This document shows, one piece after another, positions 3,481 to 47,813 of a DNA stretch of 64,000 nt. The number at the start of each line of letters is the position of its first letter. Position 1 is the first letter of the stretch. The notes under the pieces were generated by a model, which saw only the letters and a list, made by a program, of their open reading frames with translations, ran no database searches and was not told the DNA's origin. The position numbers and the translations under genes are program-made. Origin of the DNA: Rhodobacter sp. (GTDB taxonomy: Bacteria > Pseudomonadota > Alphaproteobacteria > Rhodobacterales > Rhodobacteraceae); assembly GCA_013821825.1 (NCBI GenBank), contig PNJK01000001.1:1-64000 (forward strand), read 5' to 3'.

Positions 3481-5136
3481 ATGGCCAGCTATCAATACGT
3501 CTACCACATGGAGAACGTCTCCAAGACTTACCCCGGCGGCAAGAAGTGCTTCGAGAACATCCATCTCAACTTCCTGCCCGGCGTGAAAATCGGTGTCGTC
3601 GGCGTCAACGGCTCGGGCAAGTCCACACTCTTGAAGATCATGGCCGGAATGGATACCGACTTCAAAGGCGAGGCTTGGGCCGCCAAGGGCGCCCGCGTCG
3701 GCTACCTCGCGCAGGAACCGCAGCTTGACCCGACGCTCGACGTCAAGGGCAACGTCATGCTGGGCGTCGCCGACAAGCAGGCGATCCTTGACCGCTACAA
3801 TGACCTTGCCGTCAACTACTCGGACGAAACGGCGGACGAGATGGCCAACCTGCAAGACAGGATCGACGCCGAGAACCTGTGGGAACTCGAGGCCACGGTT
3901 GGCGTCGCGATGGACGCTCTGCGCTGCCCGCCCGATGACGCCGATGTCTCCACCCTTTCCGGCGGGGAACGCCGCCGCGTGGCGCTTTGCAAGCTGCTCC
4001 TCGAAAAGCCCGACATGCTCCTGCTCGACGAACCGACCAACCACCTTGACGCGGAATCGATCGCCTGGCTGCAAAAGCACCTGATCGACTACAAGGGCAC
4101 CATCCTGATCGTCACCCACGACCGCTATTTCCTGGACGACATCACTGGCTGGATCCTCGAACTCGACCGCGGCCGGGGCGTGCCCTACGAAGGCAACTAC
4201 TCCGCCTGGCTGGACCAGAAGGCCAAGCGCATGGCCCAGGAAGCGCGTGAGGACAAATCCAAGCAGAAGGCGCTGGAAAAGGAACTGGAGTGGATCCGCT
4301 CGGGTGCCAAGGCCCGTCAGGCCAAGGGCAAGGCCCGTCTGTCGCGCTATAACGAGATGGCCAACCAGACCGTCACCGAACGCGCGACGCAAGCCCAGAT
4401 CATCATTCCGAACGGCGAGCGCCTTGGCAACAAGGTGATCGAGGTCGAAGGCCTGAAGAAGCACATGGGCGACAAGCTTCTGATCGAGGATCTGTCGTTC
4501 ACGGTGCCTCCGGGGGCCATCGTTGGCGTCATCGGCCCGAACGGCGCCGGCAAATCCACCCTCTTCCGCATGATCATCGGGCAAGAGCCGCCAGATGAGG
4601 GCACGATCAAGCTCGGCGACACAGTGAAGCTTGCCTTCGTCGATCAGTCCCGCGATGCGCTCGACCCCAACAAGAACGTCTGGGAGGAAATCTCCGGCGG
4701 GGCCGAGGTCATCCATCTTGGTGACATGCAGATGAACAGCCGCGTCTACACCGGCGCCTTCAACTTCAAGGGCACTGACCAGCAAAAGAAGGTCGGCCTC
4801 CTCTCCGGTGGTGAGCGCAACCGCGTCCACATGGCCAAGCTGTTGAAATCCGGCGGCAACGTGCTTCTCCTTGACGAGCCGACCAACGACCTTGACGTGG
4901 AAACCCTGCAAGCATTGGAAGCCGCCATCGAAGACTTCGCCGGCTGCGCCATCATCATCAGCCACGACCGCTTCTTCCTCGACCGGCTTTGCACCCACAT
5001 CCTCGCCTTCGAAGGCGACGCGCATGTCGAATGGTTCGAGGGCAACTTCCAGGCCTACGAAGAAGACAAAGTCCGCAGGCTCGGGCCGGATGCGCTGGAG
5101 CCGAAGCGGGTGAAGTACAAACGGTTTGCCCGCTGA
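3481..5136 (+). CDS. ettA: Energy-dependent translational throttle protein EttA (ABC-F ATPase)
   Basis: EttA binds the ribosomal E site and gates the first elongation step according to ATP/ADP ratio. The 551-residue length matches the family. Two ABC domains are present: Walker A GVNGSGKST (41-49), LSGGERRRVAL and LLLDEPTNHLD in the first; GPNGAGKST, LLSGGERNRVHM and LLLDEPTNDLD in the second. The charged linker between them (KQKALEKELEWIRSGAKARQ) is the tRNA-interaction region. There is no membrane domain. The start at 3481 begins the conserved MASYQYVYHMENVSK; an upstream in-frame extension overlaps the previous gene and is rejected. It appears monocistronic. Confidence 0.95.
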   Translation: MASYQYVYHMENVSKTYPGGKKCFENIHLNFLPGVKIGVVGVNGSGKSTLLKIMAGMDTDFKGEAWAAKGARVGYLAQEPQLDPTLDVKGNVMLGVADKQAILDRYNDLAVNYSDETADEMANLQDRIDAENLWELEATVGVAMDALRCPPDDADVSTLSGGERRRVALCKLLLEKPDMLLLDEPTNHLDAESIAWLQKHLIDYKGTILIVTHDRYFLDDITGWILELDRGRGVPYEGNYSAWLDQKAKRMAQEAREDKSKQKALEKELEWIRSGAKARQAKGKARLSRYNEMANQTVTERATQAQIIIPNGERLGNKVIEVEGLKKHMGDKLLIEDLSFTVPPGAIVGVIGPNGAGKSTLFRMIIGQEPPDEGTIKLGDTVKLAFVDQSRDALDPNKNVWEEISGGAEVIHLGDMQMNSRVYTGAFNFKGTDQQKKVGLLSGGERNRVHMAKLLKSGGNVLLLDEPTNDLDVETLQALEAAIEDFAGCAIIISHDRFFLDRLCTHILAFEGDAHVEWFEGNFQAYEEDKVRRLGPDALEPKRVKYKRFAR

Positions 5137-5183
5137 CACCAGCCCGACGCCCTCTGGTCCGGAACCAACACTAACCCAAGACC

Positions 5184-5206
5184 CCCCTCCCCCTCGTGGG
5201 GAGGGG
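5184..5206 (+). terminator. Hairpin downstream of ettA
   Basis: A perfect 9-bp stem, CCCCTCCCC / GGGGAGGGG, with a 5-base loop lies 47 bases after the ettA stop. No T-tract follows, so it may be a Rho-assisted terminator or part of a repeat element. Confidence 0.45.
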
Positions 5207-5863
5207 CAGGGGTGGGGGGCACCGTGCCAAGCAGCAATCGTAGGGTGCGCTTCAGCGCACCACCCCGCTTGGGCGCCCTCTCCGCACAGGGCCGCGCCCT
5301 CTCTCGGGCGCTCGCTCCAACGGTCGACGTAGGCGCTTTATGGTGCAATTCCCTTGACGCCAGTTCGGCTGTGCAGCGGGGGAGAACGCCCTCCCGGGCG
5401 GAGGGAGGGCGCGACCCAGTGGACTTCGCCCTTGATTCCGGGCGAAGGGGTGCCAAGCCTGATTGCTGTGATTTCAAAGTGCGGCCGCAGTGTGCTGAAG
5501 TGTCCACTTAACCTCGTTTCCTTAGACAGCACGAAAAGAAGGCTAGGTGGACACATCATTGGTGGATTCGTATTCATCCGATTCCCAGACCGGTACATAG
5601 CTCCCCAAGGCAACCACCCCCGCGCCCTCAGTGTTGTCCCTCCGACCAAACAACCTTGGTTTCCCCTTGAAAGGCGCACTTGCCTGGGTGATCGGCATAC
5701 CGATCCCCATCATCACCCACTACTCGGTCACCTGTTCTGGCAATCAGAACCGCCGGACAGGAGCCCCTTGTGGCCTCGGCAATGCAAACCTTAACACTAC
5801 CCTAACGCCTACAGCTAACCCACTGGAATCCCTTGCGGCGCCCAGCCCGTCCACCGTGGACAG
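5207..5863. other. Decayed intergenic spacer with short repeats
   Basis: No intact gene is supported. GGTGCGC-TTCA-GCGCACC forms a hairpin at 5244-5261. TGTCCACTTAACCT (5501-5514) and AGGTGGACA (5545-5553) form an inverted pair about 50 bp apart that could be the ends of a vanished insertion element. From about 5670 one frame reads KGALAWVIGIPIPII and a shifted frame continues LLGHLFWQ. That resembles a small membrane protein broken by a frameshift, but the homology is not secure. Confidence 0.35.
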
Positions 5864-6484
5864 CTACAGAAGCAGCCCCAGCACCTCATCCGCCAGCCGG
5901 CTGACCTCCCCCGCTGCGACCCCCCGCAGGTCCGAGGCCCCCAGCCCGGTCCCCAAGGTCTCCGCGTAGACCACCCGCTGGCCGAGCGTAGCCTCCGCCA
6001 CCCCCCCAACCGAGGCCGCCGCCTCTGCCACCTCCAGACCCAGCCGCGTCCCCGCCTTGACCCGGTTCAGCACGATCAGAGCCCGCCGCCCCTCACGGCC
6101 CACCAGATCGAAGACCCCATCCGTCGCCCAGAGGTCGACCATCGACGCCGCTACCGGCACCAGAACCAGATCCGCCTCCCGCAAGGCGGGCCGCAAATCG
6201 GCGTCGACCTTGGGCGGCGTGTCCACGATCACCACGTCCGCGAACTTCTTGAGCTTCTCGCACTCATAGCTCACCCCCCAGGCCGAGGCGGTGGAAAACT
6301 CCACCCCCGCTGCACCCAGCTTTTCCCGGCGCGACAGGAACCAGCGGCCAAGGCTGCCTTGCGGGTCGGTGTCCAGAAGGGCGACCCGCAAACCCCTGCG
6401 GTGAAACTCGACCGCGAGGTTCACGGCGATCGTGGTCTTGCCCGATCCGCCCTTCTGCTGTGCCACGGTCACGACCTTGCCCAT
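5864..6484 (-). CDS. ParA/MinD-type ATPase (orphan)
   Basis: This is a 206-residue P-loop ATPase of the ParA class, which move or position DNA or protein cargo through ATP-driven dimerisation. It has the deviant Walker A KGGSGKTT (residues 11-18), the A' box LLDTDPQGS and Walker B VVIVDTPP. The short length without an N-terminal helix-turn-helix suits the small VirC1/ParA-like group. No ParB gene or parS-like site is nearby, so it is unlikely to be the chromosomal partition ATPase. The start at 6484 has a GAGGGA box and opens directly into the Walker A strand; an upstream frame to 6604 lacks support. It is divergent from the cold-shock gene. Confidence 0.82.
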   Translation of the reverse strand: MGKVVTVAQQKGGSGKTTIAVNLAVEFHRRGLRVALLDTDPQGSLGRWFLSRREKLGAAGVEFSTASAWGVSYECEKLKKFADVVIVDTPPKVDADLRPALREADLVLVPVAASMVDLWATDGVFDLVGREGRRALIVLNRVKAGTRLGLEVAEAAASVGGVAEATLGQRVVYAETLGTGLGASDLRGVAAGEVSRLADEVLGLLL

Positions 6485-6729
6485 CGCGATTCCCTCACTT
6501 GCTGCGACGCAGCATAGACGGTTTTGCGGCGGCAGCACAGAGCAAAGGCCCACCAGGCACCCGAAGCACCTGAACCTCTTGGAATCAGCCGCAGAATATG
6601 CCAATATTTTTTTGCGACGTTAACTTTTCGACCACTGTCTCCGACCATCGGCCACAGCAATCGACTTCAAGCTGACGGGGCCAAGCCGCCGCAATCTCGC
6701 GGGCGGAAGACTTGACAGGAGACATCACG

Positions 6730-6936
6730 ATGGCCAAGGGCACCGTGAAATGGTTCAATGAAACCAAGGGCTACGGCTTCATTGCCCCGGAAGGTGGCAA
6801 GAAGGATGTGTTTGTCCACATCACCGCGCTGGAGCGTGCTGGTCTGCGCAGCCTGAAGGATGGTCAGCCGGTCACCTTCGACATCGAAGCTGGCCGTGAC
6901 GGTCGCGAATCCGCGACGAACCTCGCACTCGCCTGA
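6730..6936 (+). CDS. Cold-shock domain protein (CspA family)
   Basis: A 68-residue single cold-shock domain acting as an RNA chaperone. RNP1 (KGYGFI) and RNP2 (VFVHI) are intact after the standard opening MAKGTVKWFN. The start at 6730 is set by a CAGGAG box and the conserved N-terminus. The roughly 245-base gap to the divergent ParA-like gene leaves room for a long 5' leader, as is common for cold-shock genes, but no specific thermosensor fold could be assigned. Confidence 0.93.
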   Translation: MAKGTVKWFNETKGYGFIAPEGGKKDVFVHITALERAGLRSLKDGQPVTFDIEAGRDGRESATNLALA

Positions 6937-6955
6937 AGCGGGCGGCAAGAACGCG

Positions 6956-6980
6956 CGGCGGGCGGCAGGCCGCCCCCCGC
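6956..6980 (+). terminator. GC-rich hairpin after the cold-shock gene
   Basis: GGGCGGC-AG-GCCGCCC and flanking complementary bases lie about 20 bases after the stop, between convergent genes. There is no T-tract, and the tight loop implies partial opening. It is a weak candidate. Confidence 0.35.
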
Positions 6981-6988
6981 AATACCAT

Positions 6989-7420
6989 TTACATCAATGT
7001 CATTGCCGACCGGTCACGCAGGACGTGTTCGAAGCCCCTGCGGAAGCCCGTTTCAGACACATGGTCCGGAAGACAGACAGCCGTGCGAAGCCCCATCGGG
7101 TAGGCCGGGATTTCAAACTCCTGACTGACCAGCATCACCCGCATCTTCGCTTCGGCGGCGATCAACGTGGCAATAGCGCGTTCGGCTGCGGCGATGCCGC
7201 CGAAAGCGTCGCAATCCATCACAAACAGATCATAACCCATCGGATCGTCCAGGATGGCCGAAAGGGCCGTGTAAACTTCGTCCTCGACATCGACCAAGCT
7301 GCCATAAGTCGCAAGCCGTCGTGAGGTAAGTCCATCGGGCTGGTCCGTCAGAAGCATCACGCGGATGCCCAGGGAATGCTGCGCCGAAGTCTGCCTGCCG
7401 GTTCTTGCGAGAATTTGCAC
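6989..7420 (-). CDS. Orphan receiver-like protein
   Basis: A roughly 143-residue protein with the layout of a response-regulator receiver: strand IRVMLLTDQ, acidic strand end YDLFVMDCDAFGG as the presumed phospho-acceptor site, and later strand MRVMLVSQEFEIP. No output domain and no adjacent kinase are present. I chose GTG at 7420 because a GGAGG box lies eight bases upstream; a GTG at 7435 is possible. It is convergent with the cold-shock gene. Its partner and role are unknown. A degenerate receiver used in protein-protein contacts is as likely as a phosphorylated one. Confidence 0.6.
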   Translation of the reverse strand: MQILARTGRQTSAQHSLGIRVMLLTDQPDGLTSRRLATYGSLVDVEDEVYTALSAILDDPMGYDLFVMDCDAFGGIAAAERAIATLIAAEAKMRVMLVSQEFEIPAYPMGLRTAVCLPDHVSETGFRRGFEHVLRDRSAMTLM

Positions 7421-7686
7421 GTGCACTGCCTCCACTGCCTTTCATCAGACTGCACCAGCAATGCGGTCAGCATTCGCCGGAAAAAAGGAAACATACAGGT
7501 AAAATTCGGCGCCCGTGCCACATTCAAGCAGAGGTTGCCAGATGGGCAGGAGCACCAAGCGTCATAGTTGCAAGACGTCAGCTCTGCACCGTTTGGGATG
7601 GTTACAAGGAAGGTGTTAACCTATTCTTCGCTGAATTGCAGCCCTTGATCCATCGTCGGGCGGATCGAATCAATCGTGGGGTGGGG

Positions 7687-8433
7687 ATGAACCGGTACGC
7701 AAACCTTACACAGTGGGAACTTCGGCAGGATCTTGCCGCCGCGTTTCGCTGGACCGTGCGACTGAATCTGCACGAAGCGGTGGCCAACCATTTCTCGGTC
7801 GCGGTGAACCCCGAGGGCACGCGGTTCCTGATCAACCCCAACGGACGGCACTTTTCGCGCATCACCGCTTCGTCGCTGGTCGAGATTGACGCGAACGATC
7901 CGTCCACCCGGTCGCGGCCCGACGCACCCGACCCGACAGCCTGGGGGCTGCATGGGGCGGTACACCGGGCCTGCCCGCATGCAGTCTGCGTGATGCACGT
8001 CCATTCGATTCACGCCACCGTGCTGGCCAGTCTGGCCGACAGCCGACTGCCCGCGATCGACCAGAACACCGCGATGTTCCACAACCGGCTTGTCGTGGAC
8101 GACCATTTCGGCGGCATGGCCTTTGAAGAAGAAGGCGCGCGTTGTGCCGGCCTGCTGGCCGACCCGAAGATCACCACGATGGTGATGGGCAACCATGGCG
8201 TGCTGGTCATCGGCGCCACGGTTGCCGAAACCTTCAACCGGCTTTACTATTTCGAGCGCGCCGCCGAGACCTATATCCGCGCGTTGCAGACTGGACGGCC
8301 GCTGCGCATCCTGCCAGAAGAGATCGCCGAAAAGACCGCCCGGGAATGGGAGACCTATCCCGGTTTCGCCGAGGCGCATCTCCGTGAACTGCGCGCGATC
8401 CTTGATGTGGAAGACCCGGGCTACGCCAGCTGA
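7687..8433 (+). CDS. Class II aldolase/adducin-family protein
   Basis: The 248-residue product belongs to the zinc aldolase/epimerase fold (fuculose-1-phosphate aldolase, ribulose-5-phosphate epimerase). Metal-ligand histidines lie in HVHSIH, with a further conserved block MGNHGVLVIG and the C-terminal helix EIAEKTAREWE. The early conserved NHFSVAVNPEGTRFLINP matches the family. The ATG at 7687 follows a GGGGTGGGG stretch; longer in-frame starts have no support. It lies upstream of a choline-sulfatase gene in the same direction. The substrate is unknown. Confidence 0.82.
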   Translation: MNRYANLTQWELRQDLAAAFRWTVRLNLHEAVANHFSVAVNPEGTRFLINPNGRHFSRITASSLVEIDANDPSTRSRPDAPDPTAWGLHGAVHRACPHAVCVMHVHSIHATVLASLADSRLPAIDQNTAMFHNRLVVDDHFGGMAFEEEGARCAGLLADPKITTMVMGNHGVLVIGATVAETFNRLYYFERAAETYIRALQTGRPLRILPEEIAEKTAREWETYPGFAEAHLRELRAILDVEDPGYAS

Positions 8434-45092: not shown

Positions 45093-45150
45093 CTACGGCG
45101 GTCCGCGTCGGAAACTTTACCTAGATACCATAGGGCGAAAAGCCAAGTCT

Positions 45151-45226
45151 TTGACTCTCTTGACTCTCCCAGGTTGAAATGTGGCTCGCCACCAGAGTTT
45201 GCAGGGATTGACACCAGAGTTGGCAG
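45151..45226 (+). repeat. Left boundary repeats of the repressor island
   Basis: Tandem TTGACTCTC TTGACTCTC (45151-45168) precedes two copies of a second motif: CACCAGAGTTTGCAG (45190-45204) and TTGACACCAGAGTTGGCAG (45208-45226). The latter is matched in inverse orientation at 47116-47134, so it may mark the left end of a small element. Confidence 0.6.
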
Positions 45227-45296
45227 CAAACGCTTTTCAGCGGCGACGGCTGGATTTGAGCTTCGGCTGTGCTCCAGGTGGAAAGGGGAGAGGCCA

Positions 45297-45548
45297 TCAC
45301 GCGGCCTCTTTCTTCGATTTGGGTGGGCGGGGGATGTCGCGCGGCCATTCCAGGTCCGCAGGCCAGTTATCCGCGAACCATGTCAGGACGCGCTCGGCTG
45401 TCCTTGTCCGACAGTCGGCACCCTTCGCGATAATGTTGTGGAAGAAGTCGCCCTTCCCGAAAATCCGCATGGAGATCGCGAAGTGGCCGACACTCTCGTG
45501 TGCGGCGAGCGTCTGGGCGAGATGAAGGAGTAGGGCTGTTTGACTCAT
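45297..45548 (-). CDS. Small Cro-like putative DNA-binding protein
   Basis: An 83-residue protein divergent from the island repressor. The pattern VGHFAISMRIFGKGDFFHNI ... TRTAERVLTWFADNWP resembles the compact helix-turn-helix seen in small phage-type regulators (helix, GK/GD turn, then a TAExVLxWF helix), and its first part can be aligned to SKLAVGHPSLIKNL in the neighbouring repressor. It could act as a Cro-like counterpart, but no named family is recognised. The start at 45548 leads straight into the operator array. Confidence 0.55.
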   Translation of the reverse strand: MSQTALLLHLAQTLAAHESVGHFAISMRIFGKGDFFHNIIAKGADCRTRTAERVLTWFADNWPADLEWPRDIPRPPKSKKEAA

Positions 45549-45558
45549 GGGCCGACAT

Positions 45559-45626
45559 TAGCCTGTAGTGGCTCATCCTGTAAAGCCACTACAGGCTATA
45601 TTTTGCATTTTAGCCATTACAGGCTA
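45559..45626. promoter_or_regulatory. Three operator-like repeats between divergent regulators
   Basis: Three 16-bp half-symmetric sites share TAGCC-N6-GGCTA: TAGCCTGTAGTGGCTC (45559-45574), AAGCCACTACAGGCTA (45583-45598) and TAGCCATTACAGGCTA (45611-45626). Centres are 24 and 28 bp apart. The first two also form a perfect 15-bp inverted repeat. This is laid out like the triple operator of a lambdoid switch, with the outer sites close to each start codon. Confidence 0.75.
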
Positions 45627-45636
45627 TCTTTGCCCG

Positions 45637-46305
45637 ATGGATGCGATTCTCGACTCTATCGACCAGGCACTTCGTGAGAAGGGATTGTCCGATTCGGCGG
45701 CTTCAAAGCTGGCTGTCGGGCACCCCTCTCTCATCAAGAATTTGCGCATGCCGCGCGATGGCGAGAAACGTTACAACCTGCCCGCCTTGATGAGGTTGGC
45801 CGATGTCTTGGACCTCGAATTCTACTTCGGCCCCAGAAGACCAGCAGGCAGACCGGACAACGGCGTTTCCTTGCGGAACCTGTCGCCTGATGCGGATTCC
45901 CCGTCTGGTTTCCTGATCATCCCATGGCTGGACGCGGGTCTGAACAGATCCAGCGCTCCGGTTGCCTTTTCGCGGGCATGGCTTGCCACGCACGGTCTCA
46001 TTCCCGACTTCCTTCTGGTGGCTCAGCCCGACAAGATATCTGTCGAAGACCGACCATCTGGCGACAGTCTCGTCTTGCTCGACACGCGGCCGGTGATCCG
46101 CAAGGGCCATGGCCTTTGGTGCTATCGGGAACCTGGCCGCATCAGCGTATCATGGGTGACCTTTTCTGGTAGTGTAACGGTCGTCCAGGCGTCGGACCCG
46201 GAGCAGGAACCTCAGATCATTCACGGCCCACCTGGAGGGGCGATCAGCATTATCGGCAAGGTGGTCTGGCTCGGCCAAAGCCTGCTGATGAAGGGCAAGA
46301 TTTGA
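45637..46305 (+). CDS. Phage-type repressor with N-terminal HTH and S24-like C-terminal domain
   Basis: A 222-residue regulator. The N-terminal 70 residues (LREKGLSDSAASKLAVGHPSLIKNLR, then YNLPALMRLADVLDLEFYFG) form a lambda-repressor-like helix-turn-helix. The C-terminal part (SRAWLATHGLIPDFLLVAQPDK, SGDSLVLLDTRPVIRKGHGLWCYR, IIGKVVWLGQSL) follows the LexA/S24 peptidase fold. The lysine usually found after the long beta strand is not obvious, so self-cleavage may be lost. The ATG at 45637 is preferred over an upstream frame that would run through the operators. Confidence 0.78.
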   Translation: MDAILDSIDQALREKGLSDSAASKLAVGHPSLIKNLRMPRDGEKRYNLPALMRLADVLDLEFYFGPRRPAGRPDNGVSLRNLSPDADSPSGFLIIPWLDAGLNRSSAPVAFSRAWLATHGLIPDFLLVAQPDKISVEDRPSGDSLVLLDTRPVIRKGHGLWCYREPGRISVSWVTFSGSVTVVQASDPEQEPQIIHGPPGGAISIIGKVVWLGQSLLMKGKI

Positions 46306-46339
46306 TAACTGCCCAAATTTGTTCACAAGGAGATTGAAC

Positions 46340-46597
46340 ATGAAGACCTTCGTCCTAACCGCGTTTTTGCTGGCCCTCGCAGCCTGCGTTCCAGCCGGAG
46401 AGCCTATTGTCTCCGACTACAATGGCGACAGCGTCAAGATCGCGATGTACAACGCTTTCGGTGAGGGTGCGCGCAGCGCGGCCACCGATGCCGAAGCGCT
46501 TCGCATCTGCCAGAAAGGTGGCAAGCGCACCGCCGAATATGCTTCCGTGCGCCAGTCCGCCGAGTACCAGGTCGAGCACCTCTACCTCTGCCTCTGA
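46340..46597 (+). CDS. Small putative lipoprotein of the repressor island
   Basis: An 85-residue protein with a lipoprotein signal ending LAAC (Cys16) and a mature part of about 70 residues containing GDSVKIAMYNAFGEGARSAATDAEALRICQKGG and a C-terminal cysteine. The AAGGAG box lies ideally before the ATG at 46340. No family is recognised. It follows the repressor by 34 bases and ends before a hairpin terminator, so it may be co-transcribed with it. An envelope or superinfection-type role is speculative. Confidence 0.65.
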   Translation: MKTFVLTAFLLALAACVPAGEPIVSDYNGDSVKIAMYNAFGEGARSAATDAEALRICQKGGKRTAEYASVRQSAEYQVEHLYLCL

Positions 46598-46619
46598 CCC
46601 GAAAATCAGTTCCCAGAAC

Positions 46620-46644
46620 GGGATCGGGTATCATGCCCGATCCT
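46620..46644 (+). terminator. Hairpin after the island lipoprotein gene
   Basis: GGATCGGG-TATCATG-CCCGATCC, an 8-bp perfect stem with a 7-base loop, lies 23 bases past the stop. No long T-tract follows. Confidence 0.55.
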
Positions 46645-46679
46645 GTCGCCGTTTCTCGGCCTTTCCAAAGCCTTAGCGC

Positions 46680-46724
46680 GAACTGGGAACTGGCGGACGA
46701 ACTTGGCGCGTCAGTTCCCAGTTC
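46680..46724. repeat. Inverted repeat GAACTGGGAACTG
   Basis: GAACTGGGAACTG (46680-46692) and CAGTTCCCAGTTC (46712-46724) are perfect 13-bp arms with a 19-base loop. A further partial copy, CAGTTCCCAG, lies at 46607-46616 just before the lipoprotein terminator. Confidence 0.7.
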
Positions 46725-46809
46725 CAGAAGCCGGTTGCATGTTGTGGGGGTCGATGAAGCGGCATCGATCACACACCCCATATCCTCCAAAATCAATGTG
46801 TTAAACGCT

Positions 46810-46851
46810 ACATGCAAATGGCAACCCGAACATGCGGCTCCATTTGCATGT
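46810..46851. repeat. Inverted repeat ACATGCAAATGG
   Basis: Perfect 12-bp arms ACATGCAAATGG (46810-46821) and CCATTTGCATGT (46840-46851) flank an 18-base loop that itself contains ACATGC. The function is unknown; a folded RNA or recombination site are options. Confidence 0.7.
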
Positions 46852-47077
46852 TCCGAGACCCCGGCAGCCCGTCCCTTGCACTGCATTGACCCGTTTAGTG
46901 GACCTTAAACACTGGTTTTACAGGGGTTTAAACGCACCCTTCCCGCCGATGCATGATTTATGCATTTGCTGTGTTGCAGGGCCTCATTCCCCGGTTTTCG
47001 CCATTTCCTGCTGACAACCCCGCGCGCCTCTACCCCGTCGCCGCCACCGCGCTAACCCCGCGCCACCCCACGCTTTT

Positions 47078-47109
47078 TCACCTGTTCCCACCTAATCTCA
47101 CCTGTTCCC
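47078..47109. repeat. Direct repeats TCACCTGTTCCC
   Basis: TCACCTGTTCCC occurs at 47078-47089 and 47098-47109, a 20-bp period or two helical turns, immediately inside the right boundary repeat. Confidence 0.6.
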
Positions 47110-47115
47110 GCTTCC

Positions 47116-47134
47116 CTGCAGACTCTGGTGTCAA
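47116..47134 (-). repeat. Right boundary inverted repeat of the repressor island
   Basis: CTGCAGACTCTGGTGTCAA is the inverse of TTGACACCAGAGTTGGCAG at 45208-45226, with 17 of 19 positions matching. The two copies enclose about 1.9 kb. No target-site duplication is obvious outside them. Confidence 0.65.
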
Positions 47135-47309
47135 CGCTCAATGAAAAACCGGTTGTCCACAGAAGAATTCCAAAGAAATCGCTTTACAGGCTTCCGCTTT
47201 GGCCACACCATATCTAGTAAGGGAAGCGTCGGGCAAACGCAGACCCTTGCCAGACACCCAGCTTCTTGTGGGTCGTGGCCCGCCTGAAGCTTCATAATGA
47301 GGCCGGGCA

Positions 47310-47813
47310 ATGTCGCTTTCCGAAGACTATGCAACGATGGACGATCTTCATCCGATCGACATTGTCGAGACACTGGCCGAACACCATGCGTGGGAATTTG
47401 ACCGTGTCACCGAAGATCAGATCGCCATGGCAGTCGAAGGCCAATGGCGGACCTACTCGCTGACGCTGGCGTGGAGCCCGCAGGACGAAACCCTGCGCCT
47501 GATCTGCACCTTCGAGATGGAGCCACCGGAAAACAAGCTTTCCGATCTCTATGACGTGCTGAACCGCTGTAACGACATGGTGTGGACTGGCGCCTTCACG
47601 TGGTGGGTGGAACAAAAACTGATGGTCTGGCGCTATGGCCTGCTGCTTGCGGGCGGGCAGATGGTGGGGCCGGAGCAGATCGACCGGCTGATCACATCTG
47701 CGGTCATGGCTTCGGAGCGGTTCTACCCGGCTTTCCAGATGGTTGCCTGGGGCGACCACTCACCCGCCGATGCGATGAAAGTCGCCATTGCCGAGGCTTA
47801 CGGCCGCGCCTAA
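47310..47813 (+). CDS. YbjN domain-containing protein
   Basis: A 167-residue protein of the YbjN family, which has a type III secretion chaperone-like fold and an unclear role in stress or motility. The core reads HHAWEFDRVTEDQIAMAVEG, WRTYSLTLAWSPQDETLRLICTFEM, LYDVLNRCNDMVWTGAFTWW, and ends RFYPAFQMVAWG, all well conserved among alphaproteobacteria. It directly precedes proC in the same direction with a 28-base gap, and co-transcription is likely. Confidence 0.88.
   Translation: MSLSEDYATMDDLHPIDIVETLAEHHAWEFDRVTEDQIAMAVEGQWRTYSLTLAWSPQDETLRLICTFEMEPPENKLSDLYDVLNRCNDMVWTGAFTWWVEQKLMVWRYGLLLAGGQMVGPEQIDRLITSAVMASERFYPAFQMVAWGDHSPADAMKVAIAEAYGRA

What the first reader, a model, noticed from the sequence alone, without database searches (positions are those of the whole stretch)
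45208..47134. A 1.9 kb repressor island bounded by inverted TTGACACCAGAGT repeats
The segment carries a phage-type repressor, a small divergent HTH-like protein, a lipoprotein and a hairpin-rich tail. It is bounded by a 19-bp inverted repeat (17/19 identity). No transposase, integrase or structural phage gene is present. It could be a minimal immunity module, a satellite element mobilised in trans, or a domesticated prophage remnant. The lipoprotein next to a repressor recalls superinfection-exclusion genes.
Basis: partly seen in the sequence, partly recalled or inferred. Interest (0 to 1): 0.75.

Follow-up and report, generated by a model that had tools for sequence, protein, structure and literature searches.

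The report
Mini-phage in a transposing phage's slot
A 2 kb stretch of a bacterial chromosome is what is left of a jumping (Mu-like) virus that kept its two ends and its immunity gene, and it sits in the narrow slot before one host gene where a branch of such supposedly random-jumping viruses often settles.

Summary
The inverted repeats are the left and right ends of a Mu-like (DDE transposase) phage: 5'-TGAGCGTTGACACC...GGTGGCGAGCCACA-3', with two tandem transposase-type sites at the right end. The element is an internal-deletion derivative: left end, small lipoprotein, CI/LexA-fold repressor, three operator-like sites, divergent 83-aa protein, right end. No MuA was found in its genome; related phages carry the repressor/83-aa pair plus MuA and MuB.

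Unexpectedly, the element lies in a fixed slot. In its genus and in other genera of the family, right ends of related phages lie, after a 5-bp target duplication, 2-10 bp (mostly 9-10) from a TCCACA motif upstream of ybjN. In the family sample this holds for 8 of 9 examined genomes whose MuA is at least 56% identical to the reference, and significantly for none of 20 with less. Stacked insertions and short cassettes with similar ends and other cargo occur there too (clearest in one genome).

So this is a mini-Mu-like element at a preferred attachment site. Immunity and exclusion are inferred; trans-mobilisation is possible, not shown. Site-biased Mu-like integration has a published precedent (Citromicrobium phiA), so I call it a new variant of a known kind.

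The parts
45175..45179 (+). TGAAA, putative 5-bp target duplication, trpS side
   Evidence: Matches 47142-47146; empty site in G035. One extra A separates the left terminus from the second copy, so the duplication is imperfect.
45180..45240 (-). Phage right end (terminus CA at 45180 when read on the - strand), with two tandem transposase-type sites (45186-45204, 45208-45226)
   Evidence: Profile of phage right ends E 1.1e-17; the window copy is in the training set. Same layout in G001, G023, G025, G038.
45241..45296 (.). Deletion junction zone: right-end sequence meets the sequence that follows the 83-aa gene in phages
   Evidence: Read by eye: similarity to L017 fades near 45265 on one side and to right ends near 45240 on the other.
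45297..45548 (-). 83-aa protein, phrog_7669, predicted four-helix HTH-like fold, divergent from the repressor
   Evidence: phrog_7669 E 1.4e-29; matches in 14 phage records; model pLDDT 86. Foldseek gives only weak matches, many of them HTH domains, none with E at most 0.001.
45559..45626 (.). Three operator-like copies of AGCCAYTACAGGCTA (45559-45573 -, 45584-45598 +, 45612-45626 +)
   Evidence: 3 found, 0.03 expected. Three copies of a slightly looser pattern at the same place in phage L017 and two in L007/L095.
45637..46305 (+). CI/LexA-fold phage repressor, 222 aa, without the S24 Ser/Lys pair
   Evidence: 63-66% identical in L007 and L017; Foldseek: lambda-186 hybrid repressor E 4e-6, LexA E 2.2e-5; alignment A1.
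46340..46597 (+). Small lipoprotein, 85 aa, signal and lipobox-like LAAC
   Evidence: Homologues in G023 (85%), G025 (73%), G031 (63%, same phage as L008) and G009 (51%). The lipobox is read by eye; no signal predictor was run.
46680..47141 (-). Phage left end: hairpin-bearing non-coding region and terminus TGAGCGTTGACACC (read on the - strand)
   Evidence: Left-end profile E 2.1e-11; the window copy is in the training set. DNA matches to left ends of G026, G032, G038, G025 and G001.
47142..47146 (+). TGAAA, second copy of the putative target duplication
47153..47309 (+). Host target landmark: TTGTCCACAG and the conserved non-coding block upstream of ybjN (47310-47813)
   Evidence: Found in 31 of 32 genus genomes; gap from target duplication to TCCACA is 2-10 bp in 18 relatives. 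ybjN: PF10722 E 5e-32.

Best explanation
The segment (45180-47141) is a non-autonomous internal-deletion derivative of a Mu-like transposable phage. Shown by sequence: both phage termini, the immunity region (repressor, operator-like sites, 83-aa protein) and an accessory lipoprotein are kept, and the transposition and structural genes that related phages carry are gone. It occupies a preferred insertion slot of one clade of these phages, a few bp upstream of a TTNTCCACA motif before ybjN. Inferred: a phage transposase placed the phage, or an already deleted copy, in this slot; the repressor still shuts down incoming phages with the same operators; the lipoprotein may add exclusion at the envelope. 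The repressor lacks the Ser and Lys that many relatives have for SOS self-cleavage, so the immunity should not be relieved by DNA damage. The termini look intact, so a related helper phage could in principle move the element.
For: Ends: shared terminus with the 42-kb phage contig G001/L017 and TG...CA ends with identical 5-bp duplications in G001, G023, G026, G032, G038, G031, G308 and, at another place, G025. Parents encode MuA (PF02914 E 2.6e-48 and 1.8e-48) and MuB-like protein (phrog_296). Repressor and 83-aa homologues both occur in 54 of 110 loci examined and lie on opposite strands in 54 of 54; among the 85 loci found through MuA, 33 have both and 46 have either (13 + 12 other loci had been found through these proteins or the element's DNA). 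No MuA match in the window's genome. Slot: 18 relatives have a right end 2-10 bp plus 5 bp from TCCACA upstream of ybjN, 11 of 18 at 9-10 bp; a right-end profile finds eight sites not in its training set at E at most 0.0053. MuA and ybjN lie on one contig at prophage distance (31-37 kb) in G237, G447, G308 and G072. MuA clade: in the family sample, 8 of 9 examined genomes with MuA at least 56% identical have a right end there, against 0 of 20 lower ones at E up to 0.01 (G443 weak, E 0.16); with the three genus MuA carriers (G038 and G031 at the slot, G025 not) it is 10 of 12. Tree: clade support 97, 5 label changes against a shuffled mean of 10.3, 0 of 500 as low.
Against: The window's target duplication is imperfect (one extra A), and it is the only one of the 65 ybjN loci scanned with a full left end facing ybjN. 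The inverted repeat alone is within reach of chance for a 64-kb window. No second copy of the element and no helper were found. The slot is preferred, not obligatory: G025, G183 and V109 are elsewhere, V110 apparently (left flank only). In G237 the two flanking 5-mers differ. 42 of 110 related loci show neither repressor nor 83-aa homologue at E 1e-4 (some are fragments). Immunity, exclusion and mobility are untested.
Confidence: 0.85

Rival explanations
1. A decaying prophage remnant: a full phage inserted here, most of it was lost, and what remains has no function.
For: G009 keeps a lipoprotein relic (with a stop inside) and a right terminus, G020 only a right terminus, at the slot; G026 has a 515-bp element there. 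The window's duplication is imperfect. No MuA in the genome.
Against: All three ORFs are open, the three operator-like sites match the motif exactly, and both termini fit the profiles of ends of longer phages (window copies in training).
Confidence: 0.35
2. A transposing satellite: a cassette with phage ends that moves only when a helper phage supplies MuA and MuB, and lands at the helper's slot.
For: G308 has two short cassettes with phage ends (873 and 1771 bp between successive left termini) stacked beside a full prophage at the ybjN slot, carrying a nuclease-like protein (read by eye) and a trypsin-like protein that hits PADLOC PDC-S45 (E 7.2e-13). G023 and G032 have both ends at the slot and no MuA found. 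G026 has a 515-bp element with identical 5-bp duplication.
Against: No element was seen at two places or in two genomes, no capsid-hijack gene is present, and only 1 of 394 family genomes matched the pattern for directly stacked ends (it misses nested stacks such as G308's). G023 (820 contigs) and G032 (81% complete) are poor assemblies, so MuA could be missing from them. The outer duplications of the G308 cassettes could not all be matched.
Confidence: 0.3
3. The concentration at ybjN is a survivor effect: insertion is random and only harmless insertions persist.
For: The insertion point is at the outer edge of a conserved block, so the region between the motif and ybjN stays intact. Lytic transposition of Citromicrobium Mu-like phages is chromosome-wide (PMC12486242, section 21 read).
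Against: Survival alone would not fix the position to a few bp (9-10 bp gap in 11 of 18 relatives), nor tie it to one MuA clade.
Confidence: 0.1
4. The ends are an unrelated transposon or a tyrosine-integrase island that merely carries phage genes.
For: No transposase or integrase is encoded in the element.
Against: The same kind of ends bound MuA/MuB phages with 5-bp duplications.
Confidence: 0.03

Closest known systems
Mu-like siphophages of Rhodobacteraceae (vB_ThpS-P1, vB_PeaS-P1, Rhodobacter phage RC1, RS1, vB_RhkS_P1)
   Same: Homologues of the 83-aa protein in all five, and of the repressor in all but vB_PeaS-P1, on opposite strands near one end of the record. PMC5488378 (passages) reports ParB-like and transposase genes in vB_ThpS-P1 and vB_PeaS-P1; the parents of the element have both too.
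   Different: The window element lacks all but the immunity end. The passages I read of PMC5488378 name no insertion slot.
Citromicrobium Mu-like phage phiA (PMC12486242)
   Same: Integrative transposition into one 40-bp zone in parental and newly lysogenised strains, n = 24 (section 21 read): the precedent for a site-biased Mu-like phage.
   Different: Its zone lies in a hypothetical gene of one host genus. Here the slot is non-coding, is used in several genera, has a landmark motif, and holds deletion derivatives and stacks.
Pseudomonas saltovirus Ab30 hotspots (PMC5977238)
   Same: Insertion hotspots at a set distance from a sequence motif (passages).
   Different: There 42 REP-like places take about 5% of lytic transposition events; here one place holds most settled prophages of the clade that I examined.
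Mini-Mu derivatives and MITEs (recalled)
   Same: Two transposon ends, internal deletion, no transposase.
   Different: Natural, keeps the repressor module, and sits in a preferred slot.
Tn7 and its attTn7 (recalled)
   Same: DDE-type transposition at a set distance from a conserved host landmark.
   Different: No TnsD/TniQ-like match among the 10 ORFs of phage G001 tested, and one insertion (the window) is reversed.

Membership tests
Mu-like transposable phage (as parent) | MuA-type DDE transposase and MuB | tested here: met
   In the parent phages G025 and G001. MuA absent from the window element and not found in its genome; MuB was not searched there.
Mu-like transposable phage (as parent) | TG...CA termini with several transposase sites per end | tested here: met
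   Several sites were read at the right end; binding by MuA is inferred from position and repetition only.
Mu-like transposable phage (as parent) | 5-bp target duplication | tested here: met
   Identical pairs in G001, G023, G025, G026, G032, G038, G031 and G308. Not matched in G237.
Mini-Mu type non-autonomous element (window segment) | Both ends present and no transposase inside | tested here: met
Mini-Mu type non-autonomous element (window segment) | Clean target duplication | tested here: inconclusive
   TGAAA on both sides, with an extra A at the left terminus.
Phage satellite (PICI, P4-like) | Integrase and capsid or packaging hijack genes | tested here: not met
   Three likely genes only, with no Pfam match above cut-off, no PADLOC match, and only phrog_7669 convincing in PHROGs.
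Phage satellite (PICI, P4-like) | Mobilised by a helper phage | not testable with these tools
   Needs a culture.
Superinfection-immunity module | Repressor recognising operators of related phages | tested here: inconclusive
   Shared operator-like sites in window, L017, L007; binding not tested.
S24/LexA-type self-cleaving repressor | Catalytic Ser (GDSM) and Lys (VKR) | tested here: not met
   Present in relatives such as L010, L012, L013; absent in window, L007, L017, L018. Motif meaning recalled.
Tn7-like targeted transposon | TnsD/TniQ target selector | tested here: inconclusive
   None in the 10 ORFs of G001 tested; the other ORFs were not scanned.

The most novel reading that the evidence does not exclude
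A clade of Mu-like phages has turned random transposition into targeted lysogeny at one landmark (TTNTCCACA upstream of ybjN). The slot has become a docking site where full prophages, deletion derivatives and short cargo cassettes with phage ends (repressor plus lipoprotein here; protease-like and nuclease-like genes in G308) pile up, the short ones moved in trans. That would be a transposase-driven counterpart of integrase att-site islands.
Probability: 0.3. Interest if true: 0.8.

Novelty: new variant of a known kind. Interest (0 to 1): 0.58.

Why it matters
Mu is the textbook case of near-random insertion. A clade of Mu-like phages that settles within a few bp of one host landmark in several genera gives natural material for asking how MuA and MuB choose targets. 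The deletion derivatives ask whether transposing phages have satellites, and whether a 2-kb relic can guard a cell against its own parents.

Tried and rejected
1) Chromosome origin. Because the slot has a DnaA-box-like motif (recalled), I tested whether it is oriC. dnaA lies 0.4-1.8 Mb from ybjN along the contig in the six genomes where both are known (G013, G237, G249, G261, G363, G447), and gidB is also far from it, so I rejected it. GC skew from 20 samples of G237 was noisy.

2) A phage DnaA-domain protein as target selector. G025's phage has one (PF08299), but in G447, whose phage is at the slot, the only PF08299 match is about 1.66 Mb from its MuA and of host-dnaA length. Not supported as a general selector.

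3) An RNA gene as landmark: no Rfam match at gathering score in the window, and only one chance-level match near the slot at E up to 1.

4) tRNA target: no tRNA in the window.

5) Family-wide pattern scan for right ends near TCCACAGCT: 45 of 394 genomes matched; of the 30 loci tested only one (L275, G193) was at ybjN. A recurrent match, GCCACACCGACCTGTTCCACAGCT and variants, looks unrelated.

6) Scan for directly stacked ends: 1 of 394 genomes, G452. Nested stacks such as those of G308 and G386 are not caught by it.

7) Viral-contig right-end patterns: 105 loci with 105 matches, 104 read and the last (L446, no second site). 10 passed a second-site filter; I judged 8 to be phage ends by eye (L392 and L410 dropped). 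One of the 8 (L380) has no flank. Of the other 7, 3 are at the slot (one is G001 itself), 2 are next to another phage's left end, 2 are elsewhere.

8) Left out of the site-by-clade count: 9 of 38 MuA-positive family genomes (G102, G158, G167, G170, G188, G328, G359, G378, G405) whose ybjN region was not fetched; G102's MuA fragment is 61% identical, so it would belong to the upper group. In the tree G031 MuA is two rows because it lies on two contigs, V121 is labelled as user by its trpS neighbour alone, V110 as non-user by its left flank alone, and support is SH-aLRT only.

Full report
WHAT IS THERE. The window lies in a 4.0-Mb, 234-contig genome. It is in the same genus as G038, whose contig carries the same match as the record titled Tabrizicola sp. 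bin.65. Between trpS and ybjN lies a 1962-bp segment, 45180-47141. It codes for a divergent pair, an 83-aa protein (phrog_7669, E 1.4e-29) and a 222-aa repressor, and for an 85-aa lipoprotein-like protein. Taken alone the repeat pair is not clearly beyond chance for 64 kb.

WHAT IT COMES FROM. The repressor has 63-66% identical relatives in Tabrizicola L007 and in a 42-kb viral contig L017. The pair is also found in Mu-like siphophages: the 83-aa protein in RC1, RS1, vB_RhkS_P1, vB_ThpS-P1 and vB_PeaS-P1, the repressor in all of these but the last. Over 110 related loci, 54 have both and 68 have either; where both are present they are on opposite strands in 54 of 54. Among the 85 loci found through MuA alone the figures are 33 and 46; many loci are fragments and distant repressors may be missed at E 1e-4. 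L017 has the same terminus...GTGTCAACGCTCA, and shares parts of the non-coding left end. Reading junctions in relatives gives the general form: left end TG(A/T)GCGTTGACA..., right end ...GCCACA, with identical 5-bp duplications in G001, G023, G025, G026, G032, G038 and G031. The phages G025 and G001 code for MuA and MuB. The window element is therefore the left end with the immunity region joined to the right end. No MuA was found in the window's genome; MuB was not searched there.

THE REPRESSOR AND ITS NEIGHBOURS. Three copies of AGCCAYTACAGGCTA lie between the divergent genes (0.03 expected); three copies of a slightly looser pattern lie at the same place in L017 and two in L007. A model of the repressor (pLDDT 76) matches CI and LexA structures (best E 4e-6). 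The alignment shows that the window, L007, L017 and L018 lack the GDSM serine and the VKR lysine seen in L010, L012, L013 and others (the catalytic meaning is recalled), so SOS cleavage is unlikely. The 83-aa protein is predicted as four helices (pLDDT 86); structure matches are weak, many of them HTH domains. Lipoprotein relatives occur in G023, G025, G031 and, as a relic with a stop, in G009.

THE SLOT. An empty site in G035 shows the insertion. The block upstream of ybjN is present in 31 of 32 genus genomes. In the 30 loci examined, 8 have a phage-type end against it (G000, G009, G020, G023, G026, G031, G032, G038; G009, G020 and G026 rest on short right termini, G026 also on its duplication and left end), 15 have trpS within 532 bp, i.e. 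no large insert (one of them, G010, has a doubtful relic), and 7 have other DNA or a contig edge or no trpS in view. The phage contig G001 is inserted there too. In other genera the same holds: G237, G447, G308 and G072 have MuA and ybjN on one contig at prophage distance with right ends at the slot; G452, G386, G153 and G402 have right ends there on other contigs than their MuA. A right-end profile built from 14 ends finds G031, G308, G386, G452, G447, G072, G153 and G402, none of them in its training set, at E at most 0.0053. The gap between the 5-bp duplication and TCCACA is 2-10 bp in 18 relatives, 9 or 10 in 11 of them, and 9 in the window (for nested relics the innermost was measured). 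In G237 the two flanking 5-mers do not match. These 18 were picked by their right ends; a left-end profile run over the 65 ybjN loci finds a full left end facing ybjN only in the window's own locus, so the window is reversed.

WHO USES THE SLOT. Of 38 MuA-positive family genomes (of 394) I examined ybjN in 29. Among those with MuA at least 56% identical to G025's, 8 of 9 have a right end there (not G183); among 20 with lower identity none is significant and G443 is weak (E 0.16). With the genus carriers of MuA (G038 and G031 at the slot, G025 not) the upper group is 10 of 12. On a MuA tree the users fall in one clade (support 97; 19 rows: 11 users, 4 elsewhere, 4 unlabelled), except G402, which lies outside it; 5 changes against a shuffled mean of 10.3. 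The slot is preferred, not absolute: G025, G183 and V109 sit elsewhere, V110 apparently. In viral contigs, 3 of 7 right ends with flank are at the slot, 2 touch another phage's left end and 2 are elsewhere.

STACKS AND CASSETTES. In G308 the slot holds a right-end relic, a short cassette, a second short cassette and then a full prophage, whose duplication ATGGT lies inside the second cassette's right end. Successive left termini are 873 and 1771 bp apart. The cassettes carry a 202-aa protein that looks nuclease-like by eye (no Pfam or PADLOC match) and a 265-aa trypsin-like protein (PDC-S45 E 7.2e-13; Trypsin_2 below cut-off). The outer duplications of the two cassettes could not all be matched. 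G452 has two right-end regions and a right end abutting a left end. G386, G153 and G308 show repeated right-end relics at ybjN. G026 has a 515-bp element.

MECHANISM. Shown: phage ends, deletion, slot, clade association. Inferred: MuA/MuB-driven insertion; choice of slot by MuA, MuB or a partner that reads the motif or a protein bound to it; immunity by the repressor; exclusion by the lipoprotein. A phage DnaA-domain protein is not the general selector, and the slot is not the origin by marker genes.

LITERATURE. PMC12486242 (section 21 and passages) reports a Citromicrobium Mu-like phage that integrates in a 40-bp zone (n = 24) while lytic transposition is chromosome-wide. PMC5977238 (passages) reports Ab30 hotspots next to REP-like elements. 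PMC5488378 (passages) reports that virions of vB_ThpS-P1 and vB_PeaS-P1 lack random host DNA over 1 kb at their ends. I saw no paper on a ybjN slot or on satellites of Mu-like phages in the listings of searches; the library holds open-licence papers only, and listings were capped.

Noticed in passing
47153-47309 and the same block in 31 of 32 genus genomes: The non-coding block upstream of ybjN is very conserved: 99% over 135 bp in G038, against 83% DNA identity for ybjN itself there. No Rfam match; function unknown.
   Followed up: partly
45142-45169 and empty sites in relatives: Many empty sites share a sequence like GCCAAGTCTTTGACTCTACAGACTCTCC just before the insertion point (the window has a variant). 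CAGACTCT also occurs in several phage right ends, so target and phage end may resemble each other.
   Followed up: no
L223 (G308) 5135-7778: Two short cassettes with Mu-like ends carrying a trypsin-like and a nuclease-like protein, beside a full prophage at the ybjN slot.
   Followed up: partly
L466 1-1408 (IMGVR 2788500356_000003): DNA upstream of a right end that abuts another left end seems to hold IS-like transposase sequence and a nuclease-like reading frame, read by eye only.
   Followed up: no
L091 1749-2237 (G032): A 162-aa protein with the Mu I-gamma DNA-binding domain (PF09039 E 6.7e-7) close to the right end, in a genome where no MuA was found.
   Followed up: no
G015, G019, G022, G028, G030 upstream of ybjN: These genus members have other DNA, with no phage end noticed, between trpS and ybjN or before ybjN, so the region may be a wider hotspot.
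   Followed up: no
G237 sampled GC skew: Skew turns positive near 1.40-1.46 Mb, close to the prophage and far from dnaA at 28 kb. Noisy; may reflect rearrangement.
   Followed up: partly
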